Assembly: GCA_029784825.1 (NCBI GenBank)
Contig: JAFMAU010000079.1
Span: 1 to 8,084, forward strand
Direction of reading: 5' to 3'
DNA: 8,084 bases
Source: Nitrososphaerota archaeon
GTDB taxonomy: Archaea > Thermoproteota > Nitrososphaeria > Nitrososphaerales > UBA183
Within the stretch, counting starts at the first letter, position 1. Each line of letters begins with the position of its first letter. Shown here piece after piece: positions 1-7,576 of this stretch. The position numbers and the translations under genes are program-made. Below the pieces are notes generated by a model, which had not been told where the DNA came from, made no database searches, and saw nothing but the letters and a program-made list of their open reading frames with translations.

Positions 1-1799
1 AGTGGTTCGTCGGCGGCAAACTGAACGCGTCATACAACTGCGTGGACAGGCACCTTGACAAGTACGGCAACAAGGCCGCCCTAATCTGGGTCCCGGAGCC
101 CGAAGATGAAGCGCAGCAGGTGATCACCTACCGGGAGCTCTACAGGCGGGTCAACGAGTTCGCCCTGGTCCTGAAGGAGTTCGCCGGGCTGAAGACCGGC
201 GACAGGGTGACCTTCCACCTTCCCATGGTCCCGGAGCTCCCGATATCCATGCTTGCGCCGGCGAGGCTAGGGATAATCCACAACCAGGTGTTCGGGGGTT
301 TCAGCGCGAAGGCGTGCGCGGAGCGAATGGAAGACTCCAAGAGCACCGTGCTGGTGACCATCGACGGCTACTATCGGAACGGGGGCCTGATAGACAAGAA
401 GAAGGAGGCAGACATCACGGTTGAGGAAGCGAAGAAGCTGGGCGTCGACGTCAAGAAGGTCCTCGTCTGGAGGCGGCACCCTGGCAGATACCTCTCCCAG
501 TCCCCGATGGTCGAAGGCAGAGACTTCTTCGTCGACGAGGTGGTGAAGCCCTTCCGCAGCAAGACCATCGCCCCGGTGTCGATGGACGCAGAGTCCCCTC
601 TCTTCCTGATGTACACGAGCGGCTCCACCGGGAGGCCGAAAGGAGCACAACATAGAACGGGCGGGTACCTCGCCTACGTCGCCGGGACTTCGAAGTTCGT
701 CCAGGACATCCATCCGGAGGACGTCTACTGGTGCTTCGCGGACATCGGTTGGATCACTGGTCACTCTTACATCGTGTACGGCCCACTGGCTCTGGCAGCC
801 ACCTCCGTGATGTACGAGGGGGTCCCGCTTTACCCCGACGCAGGGCGCCCCTGGAGGATCGCCGAGAGGCTTGGCGTCAACATCTTCCACACGGCCCCCA
901 CCACCATCCGCATGCTCAGGAAGGCGGGCGCGGACGAACCTTCGAAGTATGACATCCATTTCAAAGCGATGACCACCGTAGGTGAGCCCATAGAGCCCGA
1001 AGCGTGGAGGTGGTACTACGACGCAGTCGGGAAGAAGCAGGCGGTCATCACAGACACCTGGTGGCAGACTGAGACCGGCGGGTTCCTTTGCACAACCATT
1101 CCCGCCCTGGCAGCCATGAAGGCAGGCAGCGCCGGCCCGGGCATGCCTGGTATCTATCCCATAATCTATGACGAGAACGGGGTCGAGGTCCCCGCTGGCC
1201 AGAACAAGGCAGGGAACATCTGCATCAGGAACCCCTGGCCTGGGATAATGCAGACGATCTGGGGCGACCCGGACCGGTTCGTCAAGGTGTACTACTCGAA
1301 GTACAACAGGAACAAGGACAGCAAGGACTGGCACGACTGGCCTTACTTCGCCGGAGACGGCGCGGTGCTGGCCGCTGACGGCTACTTCAGGATCCTCGGC
1401 AGGGTCGACGACGTGATCAAGGTAGCCGGGCACAGGCTGGGGACCAAGGAGTTGGAGAACGCGGTACTCACGACCCCTGAAGTTGCCGAAGCAGCTGCCA
1501 TAGCGATGGTGGACGAGCTCAGAGGGCACGTGCCCGTGGTCTACGTCGCCCTGAAGCCTGGGAACGTCGCATCAAAAGAGCTGGAGGAGAAGGTCAAGGC
1601 CAACGTCGCGCTGGCGCTGGGCCCCATAGCCAGGCCGAGGTTCGTCTACATCGTCCCCGACCTCCCCAAGACCAGGTCAGGCAAGATAATGAGACGGGTC
1701 CTGGCGTCCATCTCTGACAGGAAGGACTACGGAGACGTCACGACGCTCGCCAACCCAGACGTGGTCGAGACCATCCGCAAGCAGGTACAGGCAGCCTAG
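1..1799 (+). CDS. acsA: Acetyl-CoA synthetase, AMP-forming (5' end cut by window)
   Basis: Activates acetate to acetyl-CoA through acetyl-AMP in the cytoplasm, using ATP and CoA. The reading frame is open from base 3 (W-F-V-G-G-K-L-N-A-S-Y-N-C) and runs off the left edge. The GTG at 42 is internal, because the upstream codons already encode the conserved Acs N-terminal block. 598 residues are visible against about 630-660 usual, so roughly 40-60 are missing. Visible motifs are the P-loop YTSGSTGRPKG (612-644), the DTWWQTETGG block (1053-1082) whose tandem Trp closes the small acetate/propionate pocket in known Acs enzymes, the hinge GRVDDVIKVAGHRLGT, and the C-terminal PKTRSGKIMRR with the adenylation lysine at 1683-1685. 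That lysine is the one acetylated in bacterial Acs. The genes downstream (acetyltransferase, deacetylase, acetate carrier) fit acetate as substrate; propionate is also possible. Confidence 0.96.
   Translation, partial: WFVGGKLNASYNCVDRHLDKYGNKAALIWVPEPEDEAQQVITYRELYRRVNEFALVLKEFAGLKTGDRVTFHLPMVPELPISMLAPARLGIIHNQVFGGFSAKACAERMEDSKSTVLVTIDGYYRNGGLIDKKKEADITVEEAKKLGVDVKKVLVWRRHPGRYLSQSPMVEGRDFFVDEVVKPFRSKTIAPVSMDAESPLFLMYTSGSTGRPKGAQHRTGGYLAYVAGTSKFVQDIHPEDVYWCFADIGWITGHSYIVYGPLALAATSVMYEGVPLYPDAGRPWRIAERLGVNIFHTAPTTIRMLRKAGADEPSKYDIHFKAMTTVGEPIEPEAWRWYYDAVGKKQAVITDTWWQTETGGFLCTTIPALAAMKAGSAGPGMPGIYPIIYDENGVEVPAGQNKAGNICIRNPWPGIMQTIWGDPDRFVKVYYSKYNRNKDSKDWHDWPYFAGDGAVLAADGYFRILGRVDDVIKVAGHRLGTKELENAVLTTPEVAEAAAIAMVDELRGHVPVVYVALKPGNVASKELEEKVKANVALALGPIARPRFVYIVPDLPKTRSGKIMRRVLASISDRKDYGDVTTLANPDVVETIRKQVQAA
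1683..1685 (+). other. Codon of the Acs catalytic / regulatory lysine
   Basis: The AAG codon in PKTRSGK-IMRR corresponds to the A10-motif lysine (Lys609 in Salmonella Acs). In that enzyme it is needed for adenylate formation and is switched off by acetylation. The surrounding residues match the form recognised by Pat/AcuA-type acetyltransferases. That it is modified here is inferred from motif identity and from the two downstream genes. Confidence 0.6.
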
Positions 1800-1840
1800 G
1801 CGCCGCCGTCGGTCTTGGTCCTGAGAATCGTATTCGCGCC

Positions 1841-1846
1841 TTAAAG
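1841..1846 (+). promoter_or_regulatory. TATA-like box upstream of the GNAT gene
   Basis: TTAAAG is the only clear A/T-rich hexamer in the GC-rich 79-base gap after acsA. A start of transcription about 26-27 bases beyond its centre would fall near 1870, giving a leader of about 9 bases before the GTG at 1879. This supports that start over the in-frame GTG at 1909 or ATG at 1927. The box is short, so confidence is limited, and read-through from acsA is also possible. Confidence 0.4.
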
Positions 1847-1878
1847 CCAGGGGCGGTTCCGTTTGCGCCTGAAGGCAA

Positions 1879-2445
1879 GTGCCGAGCTTCCGGTCGCAGC
1901 GGGACGCGGTGACGGCGGACCTCGAGATGAGGGATGGCACCAGCGTCCAGATCAGGGTCCTCCGGGAAAGCGACATCGCAGAGCTCGGGAGGTTCGTCGA
2001 TGGGCTGTCTGAGGACTCGGTCTACTACCGGTTCCTCACTTCAGGGATGTCCAGAGAGGCGCTCCTGCGCGAAGTCTCTCCCAAGCCTGGGTGCGTTTCG
2101 CTCGTCGCAGCCGTCAAGGGGAGGATCGTTGGGCTGTCGTCCTACTGCCGCTCCGGGTCTGGGACCGCAGAGGTCGGCCTCCTGATCATCGACGAGTACC
2201 AGGGCAGGGGGTTGGGCGCGGGGCTGACGGAGCGGATTGCGAGAGCGGCCAACCAGGACGGCATCGCGATGTTTGAAGCGATCATCGACTGGAACAATAC
2301 ACGGATGATAGAGCTCGTCAGGAACCTGGGGTTCCCCACCTCTGAGAAGGTGGAACCTGAGCTGATCAGAATCAGGTTCCCGACGTCCATAGACGCAGTC
2401 ACCCTGGCCGAGTTCCAGGACAGGTGGGTGTTCAGGGCGGGCTGA
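1879..2445 (+). CDS. GNAT N-acetyltransferase, Pat/AcuA-like (probable protein lysine acetyltransferase)
   Basis: A 188-residue single-domain GNAT. The N-terminal stretch LEMRDGTSVQIRVLRESD (about 15-32) resembles the 'LRDGT-v-iRpirpeD' opening of the acetyltransferase domain of Pat/PatZ, enzymes that acetylate acyl-CoA synthetases. Acetyl-CoA binding motif A is QGRGLGAG (108-115) after the beta-strand VGLLIIDEY. Motif B follows as NNTRMIELVRNLGF (139-152). Pat-type proteins are often fused to an NDP-forming synthetase-like or cyclic-nucleotide domain; here the domain stands alone, as in Bacillus AcuA. Its place between acsA and an HDAC-family gene suggests it acetylates Acs. In-frame alternative starts are GTG 1909 and ATG 1927. 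The ATG would leave little before the conserved RDGT motif, and the upstream TATA-like box favours GTG 1879. The GNAT call is firm; the protein target is inferred, and a small-molecule substrate cannot be excluded. Confidence 0.85.
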   Translation: MPSFRSQRDAVTADLEMRDGTSVQIRVLRESDIAELGRFVDGLSEDSVYYRFLTSGMSREALLREVSPKPGCVSLVAAVKGRIVGLSSYCRSGSGTAEVGLLIIDEYQGRGLGAGLTERIARAANQDGIAMFEAIIDWNNTRMIELVRNLGFPTSEKVEPELIRIRFPTSIDAVTLAEFQDRWVFRAG

Positions 2446-2450
2446 TTGCT

Positions 2451-2456
2451 CAATAA
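2451..2456 (+). promoter_or_regulatory. Weak TATA-like box for the HDAC-family gene
   Basis: CAATAA is the A/T-richest hexamer in the 34-base gap after the GNAT gene. Its centre lies 26.5 bases before the GTG at 2480, the spacing expected if that GTG is the first base of a leaderless transcript. The match to an archaeal TATA box is poor, so co-transcription with the GNAT gene is an equal alternative. Confidence 0.3.
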
Positions 2457-2479
2457 CCTGCCCGACGGCGGTAGGCGAC

Positions 2480-3448
2480 GTGAGAGGGTGTAGGCTCGGA
2501 GTCACCTTCGGCCAGCAGTCGTTCCTCTATTCGTTCCCTGCAGGGAACCCGATGAACTCGTCGCGCCTCTCTGCCTTTGCGGAGTATGTCAACGGCAGCC
2601 AGAAGTCCAAGCCAGGATTCACCCTGCTCGCGCCGGTCTCAGCCAGCGAGCGAGACCTTCTCGTCTTCCACACACAGGAGTACATCGACCGCGTCAGAGA
2701 TGTCTCGGTCACAGGCAGGGGGGAACTTGGGAGCGAAGACACGCCGGCATTCCAGGGGGTTTACGAAGCGTCCCTGTTCCCAGTCGGGAGCACCCTCAAG
2801 GGCCTCGAACTCGTGATGGAAGGGGAGTTCGACCATTTCTTCAACCCGGTCGGTGGGCTGCACCACTCTGCGCGCGCGGAGGCCAGGGGTTTCTGTGTCT
2901 TCAACGACGGCGTCATCGCGATGTCAAGGGCGCTCAACGAGTACAAGCTCAGGAGCGTGGCCTACGTCGACATCGACGCGCACCACGGGGACGGGGTCTA
3001 CTACGAGTTCGAGCCTGACCCCAGGGTCATCATCGGAGACATCCATGAGCACGGCAGGTTCCTGTATCCGGGGACCGGCGACGACACAGAGACGGGGAAG
3101 GGGTTCGCCACGGGGACGAAGCTGAACATCGGGCTCCCCCCGGGCTCCGGGGACAGGGAGTTCTTCCAGGCATTCGACAGGGTCGAGGAGTTCGTGCGAA
3201 AGGCCAGGCCGGAGATGATCTTCTTCCAGTGCGGTGCGGACGGCCTCGCGGGAGACCCCATCACTGACCTGAACTACACCGGAGCCGCCCACGCCTACGC
3301 CACCAAGAAACTGCACAGGCTAGCGCACGAAGTCTGCGAAGGGAGGATACTGGCCATGGGAGGGGGCGGGTACTCACCCGTGAACATAGCGGCAGCCTGG
3401 AAGGAGGTCCTGCTCGAGCTCGCGACGCCGATCCAGGGAGAATCCTGA
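2480..3448 (+). CDS. Zinc-dependent deacetylase, class I HDAC / AcuC family
   Basis: A 322-residue arginase-fold deacetylase that should remove acetyl groups from lysines or small amides using one Zn. The catalytic set is complete by comparison with HDAC8: the His-His dyad in GGLHHS (H128, H129), GFCVFND (137-143), zinc ligands D166 and H168 in DIDAHHGDG, third ligand D254 in CGADGLAGDP, and the transition-state tyrosine Y298 in GGGGYS. The loop YPGTGDD (196-202) is also class I-like. The N-terminal GHPERPxR element of most family members is replaced by GNPMNSSR. The GTG start is 34 bases after the GNAT stop and has no Shine-Dalgarno sequence. The order acsA, acetyltransferase, HDAC suggests an AcuC-like role in reactivating acetylated Acs. 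Chromatin or polyamine substrates remain possible. Confidence 0.92.
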   Translation: MRGCRLGVTFGQQSFLYSFPAGNPMNSSRLSAFAEYVNGSQKSKPGFTLLAPVSASERDLLVFHTQEYIDRVRDVSVTGRGELGSEDTPAFQGVYEASLFPVGSTLKGLELVMEGEFDHFFNPVGGLHHSARAEARGFCVFNDGVIAMSRALNEYKLRSVAYVDIDAHHGDGVYYEFEPDPRVIIGDIHEHGRFLYPGTGDDTETGKGFATGTKLNIGLPPGSGDREFFQAFDRVEEFVRKARPEMIFFQCGADGLAGDPITDLNYTGAAHAYATKKLHRLAHEVCEGRILAMGGGGYSPVNIAAAWKEVLLELATPIQGES

Positions 3449-3477
3449 ATACTGTTCGAGTTATAGCGCCTCAGCCT

Positions 3478-3483
3478 TATATA
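3478..3483 (+). promoter_or_regulatory. TATA box of the acetate transporter gene
   Basis: TATATA within CTTATATAGAAAG is the best archaeal TATA box in the window. Its centre is about 31 bases before the TTG at 3512, and the A/T run extends to 3487, so transcription should start between about 3507 and 3512. That gives a leaderless or nearly leaderless mRNA. A second, weaker A/T element (GTTATAG, 3460-3466) lies just upstream. Confidence 0.7.
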
Positions 3484-3511
3484 GAAAGTTGGGTTCACGG
3501 GTGCGAACATA

Positions 3512-4117
3512 TTGAGCCAAAGCCAGCCGGTAAAGGCTGACGTGGTTCTCGCAAATCCAGCTCCGTTGGGACTCTTCGGATTCGGCATGACTACAATCCT
3601 CCTCAACCTCGCCAATGCAAACGTGTACGCGCTCGGCTCCACAGTCCTCGCAATGGGCGTATTCTTCGGTGGCTTCGCCCAGATCGTGGCAGGACTCCTA
3701 GAATACAGGAAGGGGAACACATTCGGAATGACCGCGTTCCTCGCCTACGGGTTCTTCTGGGAAACATTCGTCTTCATCTTCATCCTTCCAGGCATATCGG
3801 GCCTGTCAGCGTTCGCACCCACTAGCACAGCCCTTGGATACTATCTCTTCTTCTGGGGCGTGTTCACACTCCTGATGTTCATAGGGACACTTCGCATTAA
3901 TGGCGCACTCATGGCGGTGTTCGGCACTCTGTGGATCCTGTTCTTCCTACTGGCTATAGGATTCTTGACAGGCGCCGCACCCACAAGCGGCCTGAGTATT
4001 GCCACTGGTTACGAAGGCGTCCTGTGTGGCCTATTAGCAATGTACACAGCGATTGCGAACGTCCTCAACGAAGTCTACGGGAAAAGCGTACTTCCACTCT
4101 GGCCAAGAAAGGCCTAG
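3512..4117 (+). CDS. Acetate transporter, AceTr (GPR1/FUN34/YaaH, SatP) family
   Basis: A 201-residue inner-membrane protein with six predicted helices (about 19-36, 42-63, 70-92, 107-126, 131-152 and 165-186). The family signature NPAPLGL is at residues 15-21, followed by FGFGMTTILLN. YGFFWETF in helix 3 and the short charged ends are typical, and length matches the usual 190-210. Members move acetate (and succinate or CO2-related acids in some) across the membrane, often with protons. The TTG start is chosen because it is the first in-frame start after the TATA box and places a short soluble leader before the signature. The gene completes an acetate uptake, activation and control set with the three genes before it. 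Its GC is visibly lower than its neighbours (28, 30 and 35 GC in three 60-base rows counted), partly from its hydrophobic codons. Confidence 0.93.
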   Translation: MSQSQPVKADVVLANPAPLGLFGFGMTTILLNLANANVYALGSTVLAMGVFFGGFAQIVAGLLEYRKGNTFGMTAFLAYGFFWETFVFIFILPGISGLSAFAPTSTALGYYLFFWGVFTLLMFIGTLRINGALMAVFGTLWILFFLLAIGFLTGAAPTSGLSIATGYEGVLCGLLAMYTAIANVLNEVYGKSVLPLWPRKA

Positions 4118-4943: not shown

Positions 4944-5933
4944 GTGCTGAAGGTCCTAGTCCTCTCGCCGATGCCAGAGGGACTGATACGCCTCTTCTTC
5001 GCCGAGAGCCTGGAGAAGTATTCTCTGGAGGCCGACTTCAAGACGGTGAATGAGCAAGGTCCGGCCCTCGACAGCGCCCTGGAAGACGCGGACATCATCA
5101 TCGGAGACTACACGTTCAAGATCCCGATAACCGAAGACATGGTCGCCAAGATGGGCAGGACGAAGTTCATCGCCCAGCCCTCCACGGGATACGACCACAT
5201 CGACCTGGACGCCTGCAAGAAGAAAGGGATCCCGGTATCGAACATCGGAGGGGCGAATGCGATTTCAGTGGCCGAGCACACGCTGACGGTGGCCCTGATG
5301 CTCATGAAGAGGATCGGATACGCGAACCGGAGGATGGTCGAAGGCGCCTGGGTGCAGGAAGAGCTGCTCAACTTGGCAGCGGAAGTCCATGGGAAAACAT
5401 GGGGAGTGATAGGGCTGGGAAGGATCGGCAGGGAGGTCGCCTGGAGGGCGAGGGCCATGGGTGCGAACGTGGTCTACACCGACCTGGTCAGGCTGCCCGA
5501 GCCGGAAGAGCAGAAGCTCGGCGTCTCCTACCTCTCCCTCGAGCGCGTCCTGGCTGAAAGCGACGTGGTGAGCATCCATGTGCCTCTTACGGAGAAGACC
5601 AGGAAGATGATGGGAGAGAAGCAGTTTCGCCTGATGAAGTCCTACGCCGTGTTCGTCAACGTCTCTCGCGGAGAGCTCAACGACGAGGCGGCCCTGGCCA
5701 GGGCAGTGACGCAGGGTTGGATTGGAGGGGCCAGCGTCGACGTGTACAGCTCGGAACCTCCAGGGATGGAGAACCCCCTCGTCACAGCCGCAAGGGACGG
5801 TGCGAACATCGTCCTGACGCCACACATCGCGGGAGCGACCAACGACGCGAGGCTCAGGATAATCCAGACGACTGTAGAGAACGTGACTCGCGTAGCCCTC
5901 GGCCAGCACCCGCTCAATGTCGTGAATCCATGA
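4944..5933 (+). CDS. D-isomer-specific 2-hydroxyacid dehydrogenase
   Basis: A 329-residue cytoplasmic NAD(H) enzyme that interconverts a D-2-hydroxyacid and a 2-oxoacid. The substrate-binding domain is split (about 1-105 and 300-329) around the Rossmann domain. Visible features are the cofactor loop GLGRIG (157-162), the acidic D180 at the end of beta-2 (YTD) favouring NAD over NADP, and the catalytic triad R242 (NVSRGE), E271 (YSSEPP) and H294 (TPHIAGAT). Length is normal for the family (310-340). The GTG start is set by the TATA box 26.5 bases upstream. Its TGA stop overlaps the ATG of the ThDP enzyme (ATGA at 5930-5933), so the two products probably act on a shared 2-oxoacid. Family members include glyoxylate/hydroxypyruvate reductases, phosphoglycerate dehydrogenase and lactate dehydrogenases; sequence alone does not choose among these. 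The lack of an ACT domain argues against a long-form SerA. Confidence 0.93.
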   Translation: MLKVLVLSPMPEGLIRLFFAESLEKYSLEADFKTVNEQGPALDSALEDADIIIGDYTFKIPITEDMVAKMGRTKFIAQPSTGYDHIDLDACKKKGIPVSNIGGANAISVAEHTLTVALMLMKRIGYANRRMVEGAWVQEELLNLAAEVHGKTWGVIGLGRIGREVAWRARAMGANVVYTDLVRLPEPEEQKLGVSYLSLERVLAESDVVSIHVPLTEKTRKMMGEKQFRLMKSYAVFVNVSRGELNDEAALARAVTQGWIGGASVDVYSSEPPGMENPLVTAARDGANIVLTPHIAGATNDARLRIIQTTVENVTRVALGQHPLNVVNP

Positions 5934-7576
5934 AGGTCTCCGAAGTCCTGGTAAGGTCTCTTGAGAGCTACGGCGTGAAGAGGGCCTACGGCCTAGTGGG
6001 GACATCGGTCCTGGAGCTCATGGACGCGCTCACTACCAGTCAGATCAGATACGTCTCGACGAGACATGAACAGGTAGCGGTAAGCATGGCAGACGCCGAA
6101 GGGCGGGTCACGGGCCGTCCGGGGGTGGCCTTTGTCCATGGGGGGCCGGGCTTCCTCAACTCTATCGTGAGCGTCACTAACGCATGGAAGGACGGGTCGC
6201 CTATGCTGCTGGTCGCCGGGGCGGTGAAGAAGCGTATGGTGGGGATGGACTCCTGGCTGGAGGTCCCGCAGTCGGCGATGATTTCGAGCGTCGTGAAGAA
6301 GGCGTGGCGAGTCGAGAGGGGGCAGGACGCCGCCCGGGTGTTCTCTGAAGCATACTCGCTGGCGATGTCCCCGCCCTTCGGCCCGGTCTTCGTCGAGGTG
6401 CCCGAGGATGTCTGGGGGCAGGAGGCTGGGAGAGACACGGTCCCGCCTTCGGCTTCGCCTGCCAGGAGGGCAGGGCAGGATGAAGTGCAAAGGGTCGCTG
6501 ACGCGCTCGCGAAGGCGGCCATGCCACTGGTCGTCGCGGGGGGAGGGATCAACAGCCCGTCGGGAGCGGCTGCGCTCGCCTCCCTGCTGAAGAGGTACAA
6601 GGTCCCGGTGGTCGTGACTGGGAACGGGCGCGGGGCGGTCCCGGACGACGACCCCCTCGTGCTGGGGAGGATAGGATTCGGGGGTGGGAACACCGTGGCG
6701 GATGGGGCGCTCGCGAAGGCGGACGTCGTCCTCTGCCTGGGGTGCGGCCTTTCTGACGTCTCCACCTATGGTTTCAACCTGACCCCAAGAGGCGAAGTGT
6801 ACGTGGTAGACCTGGACCCTCTATGGGACAGGAAACCTGCGCCGTGCTCCATGCATGTGGGGTGCGACGCGCCTGACTTCGCTGCGAGGCTGGCCCCCAT
6901 CCTGCCGCAGAGGCCGCTCGGAGGCGCGTGGGAGGCACAGATCGAGGAGTGGAGGAGGGCCTGGGGGGCGATGTTGGATGCTGGGTCTCGGACAAGTTCG
7001 GGCTTCGTGAGCGCAGGCAAGTTCCTCACGGCCCTCGACGGCGCCCTTCCTGCGGATTCGGTCCTGGCTGCCGGGCAGGGGCTGCATGTCCTGTACGCCT
7101 ACGCCTTCATGAGAGTGAGGTCGAGCCGCTCATTCCTCGCAGCGACCAACATGGGGTCGATGGGGTTCGTCTTCCCTGCGGCGCTGGGTGCGAAGATGAC
7201 CTTCCCCGAGCGGGAGGTGGTCGCGGTACTGGGAGACGGGGAGTTCCTGATGACTCTCCAGGACTTGGAAACCGCGGTGAGGGAGAGGGTCGGGGTCAAG
7301 CTCGTCATCGTCAACGACAACTCGTACAGGGTGCTGCTCATGAGGCAGAAGATCCAGAAGATGGGAAGGGTGTTCGGCACCACTCATTCGAACCCGGACT
7401 TTGTTGGGATGGCGGAAGCCTTCGGAGCTCGGGGCATCTCGGTTGGCTCGGACCAGGATATTGAGGGCGCGGTGAGGTTCATTACGGAGAAGTCTGACGT
7501 GCCGCTGATAGTCGACCTGAGAATCGACCCCGAGGACCTCCCTCCCCTGAACATACAGGGTTCCCTGATGTTCTAG
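5930..7576 (+). CDS. Thiamine-diphosphate enzyme, acetolactate synthase/2-oxoacid decarboxylase superfamily
   Basis: A 548-residue enzyme with the Pyr, central and PP domains in order (about 1-165, 185-325, 360-530). The activating glutamate is E47 in TRHEQ. The ThDP/Mg motif is GDG (435-437) with 24 residues to N462-D-N464. GSMGFVFPAALGA (409-421) precedes it, as in this superfamily. Several residues associated with true acetohydroxyacid synthase differ: the F-Q of 'GTDAFQE' is W109-L110, the H-Q of 'GQHQ' is G-L, and the pocket Trp after the NDN motif aligns with R472. It is therefore more likely a 2-oxoacid decarboxylase or carboligase of unknown substrate than a biosynthetic AHAS. The frame is open upstream to about 5717, but ATG 5930 is chosen because conserved sequence (MKVSEVLVRSLESYGV) begins there and it overlaps the dehydrogenase stop by four bases. 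Confidence 0.9.
   Translation: MKVSEVLVRSLESYGVKRAYGLVGTSVLELMDALTTSQIRYVSTRHEQVAVSMADAEGRVTGRPGVAFVHGGPGFLNSIVSVTNAWKDGSPMLLVAGAVKKRMVGMDSWLEVPQSAMISSVVKKAWRVERGQDAARVFSEAYSLAMSPPFGPVFVEVPEDVWGQEAGRDTVPPSASPARRAGQDEVQRVADALAKAAMPLVVAGGGINSPSGAAALASLLKRYKVPVVVTGNGRGAVPDDDPLVLGRIGFGGGNTVADGALAKADVVLCLGCGLSDVSTYGFNLTPRGEVYVVDLDPLWDRKPAPCSMHVGCDAPDFAARLAPILPQRPLGGAWEAQIEEWRRAWGAMLDAGSRTSSGFVSAGKFLTALDGALPADSVLAAGQGLHVLYAYAFMRVRSSRSFLAATNMGSMGFVFPAALGAKMTFPEREVVAVLGDGEFLMTLQDLETAVRERVGVKLVIVNDNSYRVLLMRQKIQKMGRVFGTTHSNPDFVGMAEAFGARGISVGSDQDIEGAVRFITEKSDVPLIVDLRIDPEDLPPLNIQGSLMF

What the first reader, a model, noticed from the sequence alone, without database searches (positions are those of the whole stretch)
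1..4117. Archaeal acetate cluster with its own acetylation/deacetylation switch: acsA, Pat/AcuA-like GNAT, AcuC-like HDAC, SatP-like carrier
Four consecutive same-strand genes encode acetate uptake, activation, and both a writer and an eraser of lysine acetylation. In Bacillus, AcuA acetylates and AcuC deacetylates AcsA. In many other organisms the eraser is a sirtuin and the writer is a fused Pat. Here a stand-alone Pat-like GNAT is paired with a class I zinc HDAC in what reads as an archaeal genome, and the Acs target motif and every HDAC catalytic residue are intact. Archaeal HDAC-family proteins are mostly discussed without a known substrate, so the locus proposes one.
Basis: partly seen in the sequence, partly recalled or inferred. 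Interest (0 to 1): 0.72.

Follow-up and report, generated by a model that had tools for sequence, protein, structure and literature searches.

The report
Archaeal acetate enzyme acetylation switch
Some soil-type archaea carry, next to the gene for their acetate-activating enzyme, one gene that probably switches the enzyme off by acetylation and another that probably switches it back on, much like a known arrangement in Bacillus.

Summary
The window carries acs (5'-truncated), a stand-alone GNAT, a zinc HDAC and an acetate carrier on one strand, from a Nitrososphaerales-type archaeon. acs-GNAT-HDAC recurs in three relatives (L001, L002, L004); G104 has the three genes rearranged. Of 77 GNAT hits, 34 share an exact contig length with a listed HDAC or Acs hit. 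The GNAT is Pat-like; AcuA identity is not shown. The best structural matches of its model are Pats, led by the S. lividans Pat domain crystallised with an Acs C-terminal domain. Its tree places it among N-terminal GNAT domains of Pat-type fusions, so it looks like a freed domain. Cassette HDACs form one clade (support 100) with intact catalytic residues. No sirtuin was found in the family's 46 genomes. GNAT and HDAC share a conserved promoter-like element of their own, so "one four-gene operon" is too strong, and the carrier is not a fixed member. Only 4 of 26 genomes with a close Acs show the arrangement. Most likely mechanism: the GNAT acetylates the Acs A10 lysine (off), the HDAC removes it (on). 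No biochemistry has been done. New variant of a known kind.

The parts
3..1799 (+). acs: AMP-forming acetate--CoA ligase, 5' end outside the window (598 aa held; most relatives about 678)
   Evidence: TIGR02188 734.0 bits (cut-off 724.95), PF00501/PF13193
1683..1685 (+). codon of the A10 lysine (last K of PKTRSGK), the predicted acetylation site
   Evidence: motif position; the homologous lysine is the acetylated K549 of B. subtilis AcsA (PMC11255334, passages)
1821..1846 (+). conserved promoter-like element CTGAGAATCGTA-N7-CTTAAAG in the acs-GNAT spacer
   Evidence: 12-mer with 0-1 mismatch in L001, L002, L004; a degenerate copy upstream of GNAT in G104 where acs is convergent
1879..2445 (+). 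stand-alone Pat-type GNAT acetyltransferase (putative writer)
   Evidence: PF00583, profile match to SlPat, MtPat and PatZ, fold matches, tree
2480..3448 (+). zinc-dependent HDAC-family deacetylase (putative eraser)
   Evidence: PF00850 252.4 bits; catalytic residues invariant in 29 of 29; model pLDDT 86.8
3477..3483 (+). TATA-like stretch upstream of satP (possible separate promoter)
   Evidence: read from the sequence; TTATATA in the window, TTAAATA in L001; no transcript data
3512..4117 (+). SatP/AceTr acetate uptake transporter, a variable member of the neighbourhood
   Evidence: NF038013 224.9 bits (cut-off 50), PF01184; different paralogue on the other strand in L002 and L004

Best explanation
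The locus encodes a reversible off/on switch for acetyl-CoA synthetase in a lineage of Nitrososphaerales-type archaea. When acetyl-CoA is plentiful the stand-alone Pat-type GNAT acetylates the catalytic A10 lysine of Acs and blocks the adenylation step, which saves ATP. The zinc HDAC removes the acetyl group and restores activity when acetate has to be used. The writer seems to be the freed N-terminal GNAT domain of a Pat-type fusion protein; the eraser is a lineage HDAC that became specialised. Shown here by sequence comparison: gene identity, intact active sites, linkage in a clade, one cassette HDAC clade, the writer's nearest relatives, and no sirtuin found in the family's genomes. Inferred: the substrate, the site, the direction of the effect and the physiological trigger.
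Confidence: 0.7

Rival explanations
1. The GNAT and HDAC are a general or chromatin-directed writer and eraser (for example Alba, histones, translation factors or several metabolic enzymes) that sit beside acs because acetyl-CoA supply and global acetylation are linked.
For: HDAC matches occur in 93 of 201 order genomes; 0 of 24 loci L107-L130 have acs or GNAT in the flanks held, 1.5 kb or less. Sulfolobus PAT acetylates Alba, and H. volcanii hdaI is cotranscribed with a histone gene (PMC2946573, passages). Pat2 acetylates glycerol kinase (PMC12607858, abstract start, passages, section 25). In B. subtilis AcuC also deacetylates TufA (PMC8556138, passage).
Against: The acs-linked HDACs form their own clade and G104 keeps a separate unlinked HDAC. 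The GNAT's closest folds are SlPat, MtPat and PatZ, ahead of the Alba acetylase.
Confidence: 0.19
2. The HDAC is a small-molecule (acetylpolyamine) amidohydrolase and the GNAT a small-molecule acetyltransferase.
For: The gatekeeper motif is P-I-T (Ile in 26 of 29), like the PIS motif of bacterial polyamine deacetylases, which also act on lysine (PMC11532494, passages). SpeG-type polyamine acetyltransferases appear lower in the GNAT fold list.
Against: Polyamine-type GNATs rank below the ten Pat entries. HDAC10's Glu gatekeeper is absent. No polyamine gene is recognised among the eight window genes.
Confidence: 0.06
3. Neighbourhood by inheritance only: the genes stayed together in one small lineage without a shared function.
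For: The same-strand cases seen in genomes (G001, G002, G004) come from one family of 46 genomes; most close-Acs genomes lack the order.
Against: GNAT hits down to 47% identity still match an HDAC's contig length. The three genes are neighbours in another arrangement in G104, outside that family, and a related fused writer neighbours acs in G064.
Confidence: 0.05

Closest known systems
Bacillus acsA / acuABC (AcuA writer, AcuC eraser); S. aureus acu without acuB
   Same: Acs, a stand-alone GNAT writer and a zinc HDAC eraser encoded together; same predicted lysine and logic (PMC11255334, PMC13121692, passages). S. aureus has a similar organisation without acuB (PMC8556138, passage).
   Different: acs on the same strand instead of divergent; the GNAT is nearest to Pat, with no AcuA identity shown; archaeal host; no AcuB (CBS-ACT) among the eight window genes, as in S. 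aureus. PMC13121692 describes the acu operon as distributed in Firmicutes (figure legend).
Pat/PatZ, SlPat and MtPat protein acetyltransferases
   [quoted passage not shown] the eraser beside it is an HDAC, not a sirtuin.
N-terminal GNAT + acyl-CoA synthetase fusions of the same archaea (L066, L078-L082, L093)
   Same: Closest GNAT domains in the tree, in one 38-row clade, support 99; one sits beside acs in G064.
   Different: Open frames of 733-927 aa; the four of seven scanned have CoA-binding, Succ_CoA_lig and ATP-grasp domains. The window gene has only the GNAT part.
Cluster 2d classical deacylases (AcuC-annotated gammaproteobacterial plus non-annotated archaeal proteins)
   Same: Archaeal, AcuC-named in databases, and in one tree region with gammaproteobacterial HDACs.
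   Different: PMC11532494 (section 6) gives the archaeal proteins no annotation; placement in 2d was not tested with that paper's sequences.

Membership tests
acu-type Acs acetylation module | acs, GNAT writer and HDAC eraser in one neighbourhood | tested here: met
   window, L001, L002, L004 same strand; G104 rearranged
acu-type Acs acetylation module | AcuB (CBS-ACT) in the operon (Bacillus form; absent in S. aureus, so not strictly defining) | tested here: not met
   no CBS or ACT domain among the eight window proteins; rest of the genome not searched
acu-type Acs acetylation module | writer belongs to the AcuA subfamily | tested here: inconclusive
   nearest models and structures are Pat; no AcuA sequence was compared
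acu-type Acs acetylation module | writer acetylates and eraser deacetylates the Acs A10 lysine | not testable with these tools
   needs enzymes
Pat protein acetyltransferases | GNAT domain nearest to Pat, with the catalytic Glu | tested here: met
   first ten Foldseek matches are Pats; E98 aligned with the Pat Glu and invariant in 31 of 31
Pat protein acetyltransferases | fusion to an NDP-forming acyl-CoA synthetase or to a cyclic-nucleotide domain | tested here: not met
   188-aa stand-alone ORF, GNAT domains only
Classical Zn2+ deacetylases (HDAC family) | Hist_deacetyl domain with His-His, Asp/His/Asp zinc ligands and catalytic Tyr | tested here: met
   PF00850 252.4 bits against 27.9; residues invariant in 29 of 29; residue roles by alignment to HDLP and partly recalled
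Class I HDAC / AcuC side (cluster 2) | closer to class I than to class II | tested here: inconclusive
   sequence favours HDLP/class I per domain; fold ranks HdaH first, HDAC8 and HDAC6 nearly tied below
Acetylpolyamine amidohydrolases | Glu gatekeeper (HDAC10) or PSL/L2 loop dimer (ApaH) | tested here: inconclusive
   no Glu gatekeeper, but Ile also occurs in bacterial polyamine deacetylases; L2 loop not measured
AcsA acetate--CoA ligase | equivalog score and A10 motif | tested here: met
   TIGR02188 734.0 against 724.95; PKTRSGK
SatP/AceTr acetate transporter | NF038013 above cut-off | tested here: met
   224.9 against 50 bits

The most novel reading that the evidence does not exclude
A sirtuin-free archaeal lineage built its own Acs acetylation switch by freeing the GNAT domain of a Pat-type fusion and pairing it with a dedicated HDAC, convergently with the bacterial acu systems. 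The pair is placed under a promoter element shared with pyruvate:ferredoxin oxidoreductase and malic enzyme, so that one regulon controls the acetyl-CoA node. This would give archaeal HDACs a first metabolic substrate.
Probability: 0.4. Interest if true: 0.75.

Novelty: new variant of a known kind. Interest (0 to 1): 0.6.

Why it matters
In the papers seen, no archaeal HDAC-family protein has a proven substrate: a 2024 survey calls the archaeal members of its cluster 2d non-annotated (PMC11532494, section 6); H. volcanii HdaI is essential and cotranscribed with a histone gene, but proof of histone acetylation was missing in 2010 (PMC2946573, passages); the Haloferax glycerol-kinase work tested Sir2 and has no mention of HDAC (PMC12853182, term search and passages). 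A conserved acs-writer-eraser cassette names a substrate, a site and a testable pair of purified proteins. It also suggests that the Acs acetylation switch was assembled more than once, from different GNAT branches. Searches listed no paper whose title or abstract start describes such an archaeal cassette; the library holds open-licence papers only, and many listed papers were not opened.

Tried and rejected
Four-gene operon: set aside, because GNAT-HDAC has its own conserved promoter-like element and satP varies. Taking the PKTRSGK motif as evidence for regulation: set aside, since it is needed for catalysis. Class by fold: inconclusive. 'HDAC6 is the best PDB match': an effect of summing two domains; per domain HDLP scores higher. 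AcuB elsewhere in the genome: not searched. Its absence as a special feature: dropped, since S. aureus lacks it too. Sir2-HDAC avoidance across the order (overlap 11, expected 31, Fisher p 9e-10) ignores phylogeny and MAG gaps and is offered only as context. The promoter element is not specific to the cassette: 7-10 matches in each of G001, G002 and G004, and in G104 it is not commoner than its reversed control (5 against 7).

The HDAC tree used 117 of 119 listed P rows: two shorter than 280 aa were dropped and the window's own row P0078 was left out; the 35 linked rows include duplicates of L002 and L106. Because the GNAT search starts from the window, the in-clade/out-clade contrast (30 of 81 against 1 of 36 P rows) is partly built in. 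The GNAT tree used 29 of the 77 hits, 36 locus domains and the window. Of 26 promoter-element matches in G001, G002 and G004, three are the cassette copies; 20 of the other 23 were looked at and 10 of those 20 ORFs scanned with Pfam. Both trees are quick searches with SH-aLRT support only. Confidence was lowered from 0.72 to 0.70 and rival 1 raised from 0.17 to 0.19 after (HdaI beside a histone gene; TufA as a second AcuC substrate).
Full report
What is there. The 8,084-base window carries, on the + strand, an AMP-forming acetate--CoA ligase (acs, open at the 5' end), a 188-aa GNAT, a 322-aa HDAC-family protein and a SatP/AceTr acetate carrier, then a DUF998 membrane protein on the other strand, a D-2-hydroxyacid dehydrogenase, a ThDP enzyme and the start of an M20 amidohydrolase. 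The closest named relative is a MAG called Thaumarchaeota archaeon REEA69 (L001: Acs 98%, GNAT 86%, HDAC 93%), and other close hits are called Nitrososphaerales.

Active sites. The HDAC has His-His (128-129), D164, D166, H168, D254 and Y298, invariant in 29 of 29 aligned sequences (roles by alignment to HDLP, and partly recalled). The GNAT has the acetyl-CoA loop YQGRGLG and E98, invariant in 31 of 31, which aligns with the catalytic Glu of the mycobacterial Pats (PDB 4onu is titled E234A mutant). Acs has PKTRSGK. This lysine is conserved in the enzyme family and mutation of it impairs adenylation (PMC11255334, passage), so its presence permits regulation without proving it.

Conservation of the neighbourhood. 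Of 51 HDAC loci from genome contigs, 3 (L001, L002, L004) hold acs and this GNAT next to the HDAC; L003 begins inside the HDAC, so its upstream side cannot be seen. L005 has the HDAC without them. In a sample of 201 genomes of the order, the stand-alone GNAT clade occurs in four: G001, G002, G004 and G104. In all four the HDAC is adjacent. In the first three acs is upstream on the same strand. In G104, outside the family of the other three, the order is acs> <HDAC <GNAT. In the protein database, 25 of 77 GNAT hits (the window's own included) share the exact longest-contig length with one of the 120 listed HDACs, 13 with one of the 120 listed Acs and 34 with either; with jittered lengths the means are 0.67 and 0.24. 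HDACs of lower identity (L107-L130, 52-63%) have no GNAT or acs match in the flanks held (1.5 kb or less), 0 of 24.

Results against. Twenty-six genomes of the sample have a close Acs (73% or more); only four of them have the HDAC beside it, and 14 have no HDAC match at E 1e-20. In G141 acs is followed directly by satP (79%) with nothing between. In L002 and L004 the satP beside the HDAC is another paralogue (37-41%) on the opposite strand. The GNAT of G004 lies in two frames. The module is therefore an optional, clade-limited addition to Acs.

Origin of the eraser. In a tree of 160 HDAC rows, 34 of 35 rows linked to GNAT or Acs fall into one clade of 88 (support 100); the exception is P0175, whose link rests on one contig length. 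G104 carries a second, unlinked HDAC outside that clade. Sirtuins (PF02146) are found in 67 of 201 order genomes, but in 0 of the 46 genomes of this family and 0 of the 26 with a close Acs. The same search rings in 10 of 14 control genomes, among them Haloferax and Sulfolobus. MAG gaps could hide single cases, hardly all 46.

Control of expression. The acs-GNAT spacer holds CTGAGAATCGTA-N7-CTTAAAG (1821-1846), kept in L001, L002 and L004, while most of the rest of the spacer differs in L002 and L004. A weaker copy lies about 40 bases before the GNAT in G104, where acs is convergent, so the element belongs to GNAT-HDAC and not to the end of acs. The pattern with up to 3 mismatches occurs 26 times in G001, G002 and G004 together (three are the cassette copies), against once for the reversed pattern; over 14 genomes 73 against 27, and in G104 5 against 7. 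Ten ORFs behind it in G001 and G002 are, by Pfam, a POR gamma-type subunit, a malic enzyme, a glutamate-synthase-like oxidoreductase, a GlmS-like protein, a COX2-like protein, Nramp, a P-type ATPase, an amino-acid kinase, a flavodoxin and an HTH_10 regulator. It may be a common promoter element of the lineage; the presence of POR and malic enzyme makes an acetyl-CoA regulon a fair guess, not a finding.

Mechanism. Most likely the GNAT acetylates the A10 lysine of Acs when acetyl-CoA is abundant, stopping the ATP-consuming adenylation, and the HDAC restores it. In Bacillus the same lysine (AcsA K549) is acetylated by AcuA and deacetylated by AcuC, and AcuB acts as energy sensor of that system (PMC11255334, PMC13121692, PMC11910552: passages). 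In B. subtilis a sirtuin (SrtN) can also reverse it (PMC11910552, passage); here none was found. No CBS or ACT protein is among the eight window genes, so control by energy charge, if any, must come from elsewhere. The substrate, site and direction are inferred.

Comparison. It works like the acu system, with a Pat-type writer in place of a shown AcuA. Lack of AcuB is not special: S. aureus has a similar organisation without acuB (PMC8556138, passage). It is not filed as an acu operon because the writer's subfamily is not shown to be AcuA and the gene order differs. The writer is not filed as a full Pat, because the fusion domain is absent. [quoted passage not shown] The searches listed no paper that describes this archaeal cassette (23, 34, 70, 71, 76, 84; titles and abstract starts, with passages of those opened). 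A genome paper on the soil lineage Gagatemarchaeaceae has no occurrence of acetylation, deacetylase, acetate or AcuC in its main text (PMC10640624, term search); whether the window belongs to that family was not tested.

Noticed in passing
L051:3624-8746: A deltaproteobacterial MAG has an ADP-forming-type acyl-CoA ligase, an acetyl-CoA hydrolase/transferase fused to a C-terminal GNAT, and an HDAC in a row: an apparently independent acyl-CoA enzyme + GNAT + HDAC set.
   Followed up: partly
window 1821-1846; also L181-L200: Promoter-like element CTGAGAATCGT-N8-YTTAAAG precedes the GNAT-HDAC pair and several central-metabolism genes (POR gamma, malic enzyme, glutamate-synthase-like, GlmS-like, Nramp, an HTH_10 regulator); 26 matches against 1 for the reversed pattern in G001+G002+G004.
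   Followed up: partly
L010, L033, L036, L038, L040, L041, L042: Gamma-, betaproteobacterial and spirochaete HDACs form one group (97) beside Aigarchaeota-type HDACs within the Nitrososphaeria part of the tree, which suggests transfer between domains (quick tree with long branches).
   Followed up: no
order sample of 201 genomes: HDAC and Sir2 families avoid each other (both in 11, expected 31); phylogeny and MAG gaps not corrected.
   Followed up: partly
L140:7584-7865 and G004:C66:199306-199843: The GNAT of G004 lies in two overlapping frames in an otherwise intact cassette: assembly error or pseudogene.
   Followed up: no
window 3512-4117: satP has lower GC (54.5%, GC3 65.8%) than acs, GNAT and HDAC (61.6-63.1%, GC3 83-84%).
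   Followed up: no
window 4944-7576: A D-2-hydroxyacid dehydrogenase and an acetolactate-synthase-like ThDP enzyme overlap by four bases (start of the second inferred), followed by a CpsA-like M20 amidohydrolase; the set is kept in L001 and L003.
   Followed up: no
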